Below, one piece after another: positions 1 through 41,785 of a DNA stretch of 64,000 bases. The notes under the pieces are model-generated. The model worked only from the letters and a program-made list of their open reading frames with translations. It ran no database searches and was not told where the DNA came from. The stretch spans positions 62,001 to 126,000 of the forward strand of contig NZ_JAKZLA010000008.1 of the NCBI RefSeq assembly GCF_022808775.1, given 5' to 3'. The stretch comes from Geothrix terrae (GTDB lineage: Bacteria > Acidobacteriota > Holophagae > Holophagales > Holophagaceae). Numbering within the stretch: position 1 is the first letter of the stretch; each line of letters opens with the position of its first letter. The position numbers and the translations under genes were made by a program.

Positions 1-62
1 AGCACATCGGTGAAGCGGACCAGGCCATGGCGGGCTACTTGAGGAGCCTTCACACGGCGTGA
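1..62 (+). CDS. C-terminal tail of an upstream gene (partial)
   Basis: An open frame enters from the left edge at base 3 and ends with TGA at 60-62, giving about 19 residues that end GYLRSLHTA. A pattern of acidic and alanine residues followed by YLRSL is common in the last helix of class I cytochrome c domains, so a c-type cytochrome is possible. The fragment is far too short to assign. Its stop codon overlaps the first base of the tandem repeat that follows. Confidence 0.3.
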   Translation, partial: HIGEADQAMAGYLRSLHTA

Positions 63-226
63 GTCCAGCTAGGCGCCTGAGTGGGCGCCGGCCCACGTAA
101 CGCTGGACTCGAACTGCGCTCGGCTGCGCCGATCGCCGGTTTCGCTTCGGTGCGACATCTAGTCGCACCTCCGCGATCCCACTCGACGCTGGACCCCGGC
201 CGAGTCCGCGCGGCCGGGGCTGGCCC
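61..226. repeat. 166-bp tRNA-linked repeat, unit 1
   Basis: First of two tandem 166-bp units. It opens with gagtccagctaggcgc, an inverted copy of the T-arm/acceptor end of the nearby tRNA-Arg. It contains acgctggactcgaac, a sense-oriented T-arm fragment, near 99-113, and carries the conserved core at 171-201. It differs from unit 2 at only three positions. Short frames on both strands here look like shadows and I do not call them genes. Confidence 0.85.
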
Positions 227-392
227 GAGTCCAGCTAGGCGCCTGAGTGGGCGTCGGCCCACGTAACGCTGGACTCGAACTGCGCTCGGCTGCGCTGATC
301 GCCGGTCTCGCTTCGGTGCGACATCTAGTCGCACCTCCGCGATCCCACTCGACGCTGGACCCCGGCCGAGTCCGCGCGGCCGGGGCTGGCCC
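227..392. repeat. 166-bp tRNA-linked repeat, unit 2
   Basis: Second tandem unit, 163 of 166 positions identical to unit 1. The conserved core is at 337-367. It is followed at 393-409 by the start of a third unit, which is interrupted by the tRNA-Arg 3' end. It contains a GC palindrome, ccccggcc...ggccgggg, at about 360-385. Confidence 0.85.
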
Positions 393-431
393 GAGTCCAG
401 CTAGGCGCACTTGGTGCGCCTAGCTGGACTC
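393..431. repeat. Perfect 17-bp inverted repeat at the tRNA-Arg 3' end
   Basis: Bases 393-409 are the exact reverse complement of 415-431, the acceptor and T-arm end of tRNA-Arg. They are separated by 5 nt that include the encoded CCA. A primary transcript from the tRNA could fold into a 17-bp hairpin sequestering the tRNA 3' end, or the pair could act as a terminator-like stem. No U-run follows it on the minus strand. Confidence 0.8.
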
Positions 432-488
432 GAACCAGCGACCTGCGGCTTAGAAGGCCGCTGCTCTATCCACCTGAGCTATAGGCGC
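412..488 (-). tRNA. tRNA-Arg (anticodon UCU)
   Basis: The minus strand folds as a standard cloverleaf. The acceptor stem pairs GCGCCTA with TAGGCGC, followed by discriminator A and an encoded CCA (412-414). The D arm begins AGCTCAGGTGG. The anticodon stem-loop is CGGC-CTTCTAA-GCCG with anticodon TCT at 452-454. The T arm is GCTGG-TTCGAGT-CCAGC. Downstream lies an inverted duplicate of its own 3' end. Confidence 0.95.
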
Positions 489-41254: not shown

Positions 41255-41474
41255 GGTGTACTCAGAATGAAGGAATTTAACAATAATGCCTCTTGAGCTG
41301 TAAGCAATAGGCTAAAAAAAATGTTTATACCTTCTCCTCCAAGCCGGGTCTCCGGGCGAGGGTGGCCAAAGGGGGTGGAGCCGGGCCGGGCGGGCCCGGA
41401 GCCTGGTTTCAGACGGCCTCGCCGAATTCGGGTCCCAATCAGGCACCCCACCCAGGGCTTCGACCCACCGGGGC
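41255..41474. other. Non-coding stretch between dehydratase gene and tRNA-linked repeat
   Basis: Contains an AT-rich promoter-like patch for the minus-strand dehydratase gene (41270-41335, including a run of eight A) and a GC-rich stretch with several short palindromes, such as cgggccgggcgggcccgg near 41382-41399. No gene is supported. Confidence 0.4.
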
Positions 41475-41670
41475 GGACTCGAACCGCATCCCGCTTCGCG
41501 GTCAGCCGGTCCCGCTCCCGACAGCCCACTGGGCCACTCCCTCCTCGCCGGGGGCCGGCTCCGCGCGCTTCGCGTGCTCCGCCACCCGGCGGTCGGGACC
41601 GCGGTCCCATTCGACGCTGGATCCCGGCCGCGCCTGCATGGCCGGGGCGGGTTCGAGCCCATCAGCCGCC
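41475..41670. repeat. tRNA-linked repeat at tRNA-His
   Basis: Second locus of the family seen at 61-431. It begins with a sense T-arm fragment (ggactcgaac, 41475-41484) and carries the 31-bp core at 41599-41629, 28 of 31 identical to the tRNA-Arg copy. It ends at 41649-41670 with an inverted copy of the tRNA-His 3' end (22 of 23 nt, one T missing). The middle holds a tRNA-like stretch on the minus strand that does not fold into a full cloverleaf. Confidence 0.75.
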
Positions 41671-41681
41671 CGAATATGAAG

Positions 41682-41702
41682 GCGCCCCGCTTCGCGGGGC
41701 GC
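41682..41702 (-). terminator. GC hairpin downstream of tRNA-His
   Basis: A perfect 9-bp stem, gcgccccgc with gcggggcgc, around a 3-nt loop, 6 nt beyond the tRNA's encoded CCA on the minus strand. Followed by CTTCATATT. Likely stops tRNA transcription, but the U-tract is poor. Confidence 0.6.
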
Positions 41703-41707
41703 TGATC

Positions 41708-41785
41708 TGGGGCGGCTGATGGGACTCGAACCCACGACACCTGGAATCACAATCCAGTACTCTAACCAACTGAGCTACAGCCGCC
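41708..41785 (-). tRNA. tRNA-His (anticodon GUG)
   Basis: The minus strand gives a full cloverleaf with the extra G(-1) paired to C73 that marks tRNA-His. Acceptor 5' is G-GCGGCTG and 3' is CAGCCGC-C with encoded CCA (41708-41710). The anticodon loop TTGTGAT has GTG at 41748-41750. The T arm is GGG-TTCGAGT-CCC. Confidence 0.96.

What the first reader, a model, noticed from the sequence alone, without database searches (positions are those of the whole stretch)
41475..41785. Same repeat family at tRNA-His, carrying tRNA-His's own inverted tail
The 31-bp core at 41599-41629 matches 28/31 of the core at 337-367, 41 kb away. Yet the adjoining inverted tail matches tRNA-His (22/23 nt) and not tRNA-Arg. 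So a shared core is paired with a host-tRNA-specific inverted end. This suggests an element that captures the 3' end of whichever tRNA it sits beside, or that pairs with it. I know of no named element with this design.
Basis: partly seen in the sequence, partly recalled or inferred. Interest (0 to 1): 0.7.

Follow-up and report, generated by a model that had tools for sequence, protein, structure and literature searches.

The report
tRNA-linked repeats carrying antisense T-arms
Behind about half of the tRNA genes of this bacterium (Geothrix) sits a structured repeat that carries a reversed copy of its own neighbour tRNA's T-arm; it matches the 'tRNA-linked repeats' known from E. coli since 1978, whose reversed arm seems not to have been described and whose purpose is still unknown.

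Summary
In this Geothrix genome about 20 of 45 chromosomal tRNA loci, plus tmRNA, carry one or more ~120-200 bp units. Each lies on the tRNA strand, just beyond the tRNA's terminator hairpin. A unit has an inverted copy of the host tRNA's own T-arm (invT), a folded core, and a direct copy of tRNA 3' sequence (dirT). Against 1000 reassignments of tRNAs, the fit of invT to its own host is far outside chance. It follows T-stem changes among tRNA-His orthologues. The units are inherited with their tRNA across Geothrix, and the architecture recurs in three other genera of the family. The design has a name: tRNA-linked repeats (TLRs; RtT RNA in Rfam) of E. coli. I find the same invT in E. coli tyrT, tyrV, lysV and lysQ TLRs. 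Likeliest mechanism, not proven: a read-through trailer RNA whose invT pairs with its own tRNA. New variant of a known kind.

The parts
41708..41784 (-). tRNA-His(GTG), host gene
   Evidence: ARAGORN; Rfam tRNA 68.4 bits
41682..41704 (-). terminator-like hairpin directly after the tRNA 3' end
   Evidence: sequence
41649..41671 (-). invT: inverted copy of tRNA-His positions ~52-75
   Evidence: score 41, 0 of 2000 shuffles
41614..41647 (-). 34-bp hairpin insert inside the invT/core boundary (CCCCGGCC...GGCCGGGATCCAGCGT)
   Evidence: shared with Arg and Asp units; absent from unit 1 of L151
41486..41613 (-). class A core of the unit (starts CGAATGGGACCGCGG; second hairpin 41486-41513)
41475..41485 (-). 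dirT: direct copy of tRNA-His T-loop region, GGTTCGAGTCC (11 nt, truncated)
41458..41469 (-). unit end motif GGTGGGTCGAAG
412..488 (-). tRNA-Arg(TCT), host gene
385..409 (-). invT of unit 1 at tRNA-Arg
352..385 (-). hairpin insert, unit 1
269..364 (-). class A unit 1 core as found by model R1 (88.1 bits)
268..283 (-). dirT of unit 1 (GCAGTTCGAGTCCAGC; 13 nt exact to tRNA-Arg)
219..242 (-). invT of unit 2
103..198 (-). class A unit 2 core (R1, 89.8 bits)
102..117 (-). dirT of unit 2
61..76 (-). third, partial invT closing the tandem
   Evidence: I10

Best explanation
Identity (about 0.9): these are tRNA-linked repeats (TLRs) of the Holophagaceae, the same kind of thing as the tyrT/RtT-type TLRs of E. 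coli. Mechanism (about 0.4): the unit is transcribed as a 3' trailer when RNA polymerase reads through the hairpin terminator behind the tRNA. The trailer folds into a conserved branched RNA. Its antisense T-arm (invT) can pair with T-loop and T-stem bases of the same pre-tRNA and unfold its 3' half. The direct copy (dirT) of the tRNA 3' end at the unit's far end is the alternative partner that sequesters invT and closes the element's own stem. The unit would therefore act as a tRNA-specific switch or sponge on read-through precursor. Shown by sequence: anatomy, strand and position, host specificity, covariation, deep inheritance. Inferred: transcription, pairing in the cell, and the effect on tRNA supply.
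For: Units lie 26-63 nt behind tRNA/tmRNA genes on the same strand in most of the 49 of 58 fetched cases that have such a gene upstream, and most others follow a tRNA 3' fragment or a contig end. Own T-arm fit 610/637 against a maximum of 543 in 1000 permutations; within one tRNA identity 1 of 1000 as high. In class A, 48 of 49 first units are complementary to all five T-stem 5' bases, while the half nearer the terminator decays. tRNA-His orthologues with three different T-stems each carry the matching invT. Core helices covary: 94.1% of cells paired against 81.1% shuffled in class A, 92.3 against 70.2 in class B. G-U outnumbers A-C in class B core helices (45 to 11), and class A has a nearly constant U.G pair (71 of 78), pointing to the tRNA-strand transcript. 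In 12 of 12 modelled read-through transcripts the minimum-energy fold opens the tRNA 3' half against the trailer, 6 to 23 kcal/mol below the sum of the separate folds. E. coli lysV and lysQ TLRs repeat the plan after a terminator: exact rc(49-61), core, 18-nt 3' copy. E. [quoted passage not shown]
Against: There are no expression data for Geothrix. About half of its tRNAs do without a unit, and presence varies between close species. Function of the tRNA-operon TLRs of E. coli is unknown, and deleting the rRNA ones has modest effects (PMC8144298). Minimum-energy folds ignore co-transcriptional folding, in which the tRNA folds first, and one search had no shuffled control. In class A strand asymmetry outside the U.G pair is weak (21 G-U, 15 A-C). 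Classes A and B keep different windows of the T-arm (48-60 against 54-73), which one mechanism must explain.
Confidence: 0.45

Rival explanations
1. Small non-autonomous mobile element that enters tRNA genes by site-specific recombination in the T-loop. The 18-20 nt direct copy is the leftover attachment half-site, tandem arrays are repeated insertions, and invT is copied or recombined from the new host on entry.
For: In nine own-genome tRNAs a 3'-anchored direct copy of 19-27 nt runs to the tRNA end, as attR sites of tRNA integrases do, and several start at the same T-loop base. Tandem copies are common. Core class at one tRNA differs between genera (Pro-cgg A or B, His A or another type). 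The 34-bp insert is shared between Arg, His and Asp units.
Against: Cores group by tRNA across genomes (median identity 0.75 and 0.70), not by genome across tRNAs (0.66 and 0.52). No clean empty site with a new insertion was seen between own, G045 and G006. No enzyme was identified (none was searched for). A normal integration would not make an inverted arm.
Confidence: 0.25
2. Passive by-product of replication: fold-back at the terminator hairpin copied the tRNA 3' end into an inverted arm, and template switching keeps the imperfect palindrome matched. No function.
For: The freshest inverted arms span about tRNA 45-76 with CCA (G169 Asp, G201 His). The terminators are near-perfect palindromes. 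Stem changes are nearly always complete pairs with few intermediates. L102 holds a perfect mirror pair of units around a terminator.
Against: Complementarity is lowest next to the hairpin and highest far from it (CCA 0.54, T-stem 5' 1.00), the reverse of what hairpin-tip copying predicts. None of 31 tRNAs of the C14 array and 0 of 49 other acidobacterial tRNAs show such an arm. InvT in Geothrix comes with the structured core.
Confidence: 0.2
3. Chance matches of T-arm-like sequence, since T-loops are nearly universal.
For: The T-loop part alone (TTCGAA) is shared by most tRNAs, and dirT in class A is only 8-13 nt at most loci.
Against: T-stem complementarity is host-specific: 49 of 49 rank first, 0 of 2000 shuffles at His, and controls are empty.
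Confidence: 0.01

Closest known systems
tRNA-linked repeats (TLRs) of E. coli (Egan and Landy 1978; Rudd 1999; as reviewed in PMC8144298)
   Same: Unit directly behind a tRNA (or 5S) gene on its strand, often in tandem, ending in an 18-19 bp copy of that gene's 3' end; structured; in lysV/lysQ also terminator, then rc(49-61), core, 3' copy. Own genome: 9 tRNAs have a 3'-anchored direct copy of 19-27 nt.
   Different: Other phylum; about 20 tRNAs plus tmRNA instead of ten loci; unrelated core sequence; class A units, including both in this window, keep only 8-13 nt of direct copy at most loci; the host-matched inverted T-arm is the best-kept part and I found no earlier description of it.
RtT RNA (Rfam RF00391), the tyrT/tyrV member of the TLRs
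   Same: The E. coli units contain GGGGAAGGRTGAGAASCTTCGA, an inverted tRNA-Tyr T-arm, and end in AATCCTTCCCCCACCACCA.
   Different: The RtT model gives no match on six Geothrix loci, and the Geothrix models R1 and R2 give none on tyrT.
3'ETS-leuZ type tRNA trailer sRNAs
   Same: RNA made from the sequence behind a tRNA gene (annotated).
   Different: Short trailer (67 nt); no copy of the tRNA is known to me in it.
Attachment sites of tRNA-integrating islands
   Same: Direct copy of the tRNA 3' part to CCA downstream.
   Different: Interval only ~120-200 bp, no genes, an inverted arm, and a conserved fold. What looks like a real island sits at tRNA-Thr(cgt) in this genome and has pushed the unit 12 kb away.

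Membership tests
tRNA-linked repeat (TLR) | Located immediately downstream of a tRNA or rRNA gene | tested here: met
   49 of 58 fetched units lie behind a tRNA/tmRNA on the same strand; most others behind tRNA fragments or cut contigs; tmRNA in own genome
tRNA-linked repeat (TLR) | 3' end of the unit identical to the last 18-19 bp of that gene | tested here: inconclusive
   Met at Cys, Leu-caa, Ser-gct, Phe, Glu-ctc, Val-gac, Gln-ttg, Asn, Ala-cgc (19-27 nt with at most 1 mismatch); not met at His (11 nt exact) and Arg-tct (13 nt exact) of this window; long copy present in the His orthologues of L150 and G201
tRNA-linked repeat (TLR) | Several copies per genome, often in tandem | tested here: met
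tRNA-linked repeat (TLR) | Transcribed by read-through and processed | not testable with these tools
   no RNA data; shown for E. coli rrA/rrB/rrF in PMC8144298
RtT RNA (RF00391) | Scores over the Rfam gathering threshold | tested here: not met
   no RtT match on six Geothrix loci at E<=0.5
Integrase-borne mobile element | Recombinase encoded by or linked to the element | not tested
   units of ~120-200 bp carry no gene; no search for a linked enzyme was made
Integrase-borne mobile element | Copies within a genome more alike than orthologous copies (recent spread) | tested here: not met

The most novel reading that the evidence does not exclude
Each unit is a tRNA-specific antisense trailer: about 20 separate elements per genome, each keyed by base pairing to its own tRNA's T-arm, set the level or quality of individual tRNAs. 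The same logic operates in E. coli lysV, lysQ and tyrT, so TLRs are an overlooked layer of tRNA control found in distant phyla.
Probability: 0.3. Interest if true: 0.85.

Novelty: new variant of a known kind. Interest (0 to 1): 0.6.

Why it matters
TLRs have been known for over 45 years, and those in tRNA operons still have no known function. The Holophagaceae offer about 20 per genome in dozens of Geothrix species, with a host-matched antisense T-arm that follows changes in the tRNA. That gives a comparative handle and a concrete hypothesis (pairing between the trailer and its own tRNA) that can be tested in laboratory E. coli at lysV, lysQ and tyrT.

Tried and rejected
Rfam scan for a named RNA: only tRNA above threshold in the window. 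Hits to sX4 and asX2 were caused by the tRNA-Ser itself and lie below the cut-off. IS110-type bridge RNA guides were considered and dropped: both guides would run away from the shared T-loop core, opposite to what I recall for IS110 (from memory, not tested). Recent transposition between tRNAs is disfavoured by the identity test. Terminator swapping tied to units rejected: the first 45 nt downstream diverge about equally with and without units (0.84 and 0.87). Palindrome conversion as the maintainer is disfavoured by the profile. The 'tRNA-Ser(act)' at C1:418169 is an ARAGORN false call on the reverse of a Met unit. Literature searches for Geothrix tRNA repeats found nothing; TLRs turned up.

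Full report
Observation. The 31-bp stretches match in 28 of 31 positions. The tail at 41649-41671 is the reverse complement of the tRNA-His 3' part with one gap; it scores 41 against tRNA-His and 21 against tRNA-Arg, and 2000 shuffles reach at most 29. All parts lie on the minus strand, downstream of the tRNAs.

Genome-wide. The window is C13:62001-126000 of a 3.43-Mb Geothrix genome; the neighbouring HtrA-like protein is 98% identical to that of G. paludis and 97% to Geothrix sp. SG200. The core with up to 3 mismatches occurs only three times, at Arg and His, and a shorter core pattern adds two copies, both at tRNA-Asp. I therefore looked at the flanks of all tRNAs. About 20 of 45 tRNAs outside the C14 array carry, within about 100 nt of their 3' end, an inverted copy of their own T-arm, and tmRNA is followed by three units. 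None of 31 tRNAs in the C14 array and 0 of 49 tRNAs from other Acidobacteriota do. (The stricter test, which uses only the last 35 nt and masks other tRNAs, counts 16 in the own genome.)

Anatomy, read on the tRNA strand. tRNA-CCA; terminator hairpin; invT; core; dirT. Class A cores begin with GAGTGGG and have a hairpin with tandem G.A mismatches and a second hairpin before GTTCGAATCC. Class B cores begin with GAAGTC and have a long stem with GGTA and GATCA bulges. Two covariance models found units in 23 of 25 Geothrix genomes and in none of 16 genomes of other families of the class. In 247 genomes of the phylum, model R1 hit every sampled Geothrix genome and one further genus. Looking without a model, three other genera of the family also have the architecture: 12 of 40, 4 of 35 and 6 of 21 fetched tRNAs scored above shuffles (two listed hits in G169 are marginal and reflect neighbouring convergent tRNA genes, and the Arg-cct hit in G152 may also be unrelated). 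Structure is supported by covariation in 81 class A and 59 class B sequences. These alignments were fitted to the models, which favours the structure, but the slid controls fall to 27-44% paired.

The inverted arm belongs to the host tRNA. In 49 class A first units the own T-arm (positions 48-60) ranks first among 9 distinct T-arms in all 49; in 35 class B units (54-73) in 29. In class A, 48 of 49 are complementary to all five T-stem 5' bases, 54-60 at 0.94, 61-65 at 0.76, 66-72 at 0.57 and CCA at 0.54. tRNA-His orthologues with T-stems GTGGG, GCCGG and GGGGG each have the matching invT. In G152 tRNA-Pro(cgg) carries a class B-like core and in G201 tRNA-His another core type, yet invT still fits the host.

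History. Cores are more alike at the same tRNA across genomes than across tRNAs within a genome. So units are old and mostly inherited, while tandem number, the 34-bp insert and the apical hairpins change faster. At tRNA-Thr(cgt) an apparent island of about 12 kb has separated the unit from its gene: the unit follows a tRNA-Thr 3' fragment at C1:254.4 kb, and in the two relatives it sits directly behind the gene.

What it is. E. coli TLRs are defined by an 18-19 bp 3' end identical to the tRNA or rRNA gene just upstream; 22 are known at ten loci, they were first described in 1978, and they had no known function before the rRNA-operon ones were studied (PMC8144298). Nine own-genome tRNAs meet that definition with 3'-anchored copies of 19-27 nt; the two loci in this window do not, with 11 and 13 nt. 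In E. coli I find the inverted arm in tyrT and tyrV (GGGGAAGGRTGAGAASCTTCGA) and, exactly complementary to tRNA positions 49-61, in lysV and lysQ behind a terminator; the other Lys and the Arg TLRs have only a short inverted stretch at shuffle level or close to it. Sequence models do not cross between the two groups, so common ancestry is not shown; the architecture is shared. The word 'inverted' does not occur in the text of PMC8144298; the older papers (Egan and Landy 1978; Rudd 1999) could not be read, so an earlier mention of the inverted arm is possible.

Mechanism. Strand, position, structure, G-U asymmetry and fold predictions (12 of 12 read-through transcripts open the tRNA 3' half) fit a read-through trailer RNA whose invT can seize its own tRNA and whose dirT can take it back. 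The E. coli rrA/rrB/rrF TLRs are known read-through products (PMC8144298). That the complementarity is best kept far from the terminator hairpin argues for a constraint on pairing rather than for continuing fold-back copying. None of this shows pairing in a cell, and a mobile-element origin (tandem 3' copies with a T-loop junction) remains open for how units first arrived.

Noticed in passing
own genome C14:157.3-163.6 kb (L047): Array of about 30 tRNA genes, many low-scoring, not seen in the two closest relatives (46 tRNAs each), typical of a mobile or phage tRNA array; none carries a repeat unit. G169 has a similar array at C7:677-685 kb.
   Followed up: partly
own genome C1:242224-254430 (L038, L129): Apparent island of about 12 kb inserted at tRNA-Thr(cgt); the far end keeps a tRNA-Thr 3' fragment from the anticodon on, followed by the displaced repeat unit.
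   Followed up: partly
L102 (G009:C40:18238-18487): Two identical class A units in mirror image around one terminator hairpin with no tRNA gene: fold-back duplication or assembly artefact.
   Followed up: no
own genome C8:416530-417390 (L128:2530-3386): tmRNA gene (tag ANDNFELALAA) followed by three class B units, so the family is not limited to tRNAs.
   Followed up: yes
window 41614-41647, 186-219, 352-385; C7:466368 and 466574: A 34-bp hairpin insert ending ATCCAGCGT or GTCCAGCGT sits inside invT of some units at Arg, His and Asp; found in 8 of 26 Geothrix genomes searched; a variant with another sequence is seen at tRNA-Thr in G006.
   Followed up: partly
E. coli K-12 lysV (L420:7254), lysQ (L422:3578): TLRs with an exact inverted T-arm complementary to tRNA-Lys positions 49-61; I found no earlier description.
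   Followed up: yes
own genome tRNA-Gly(ccc), C1:76033 (L041) against L258, L259: Own tRNA differs in T-stem and anticodon stem from both close relatives and has a full unit; the relatives have only a short remnant, so tRNA and flank may have been exchanged together.
   Followed up: partly
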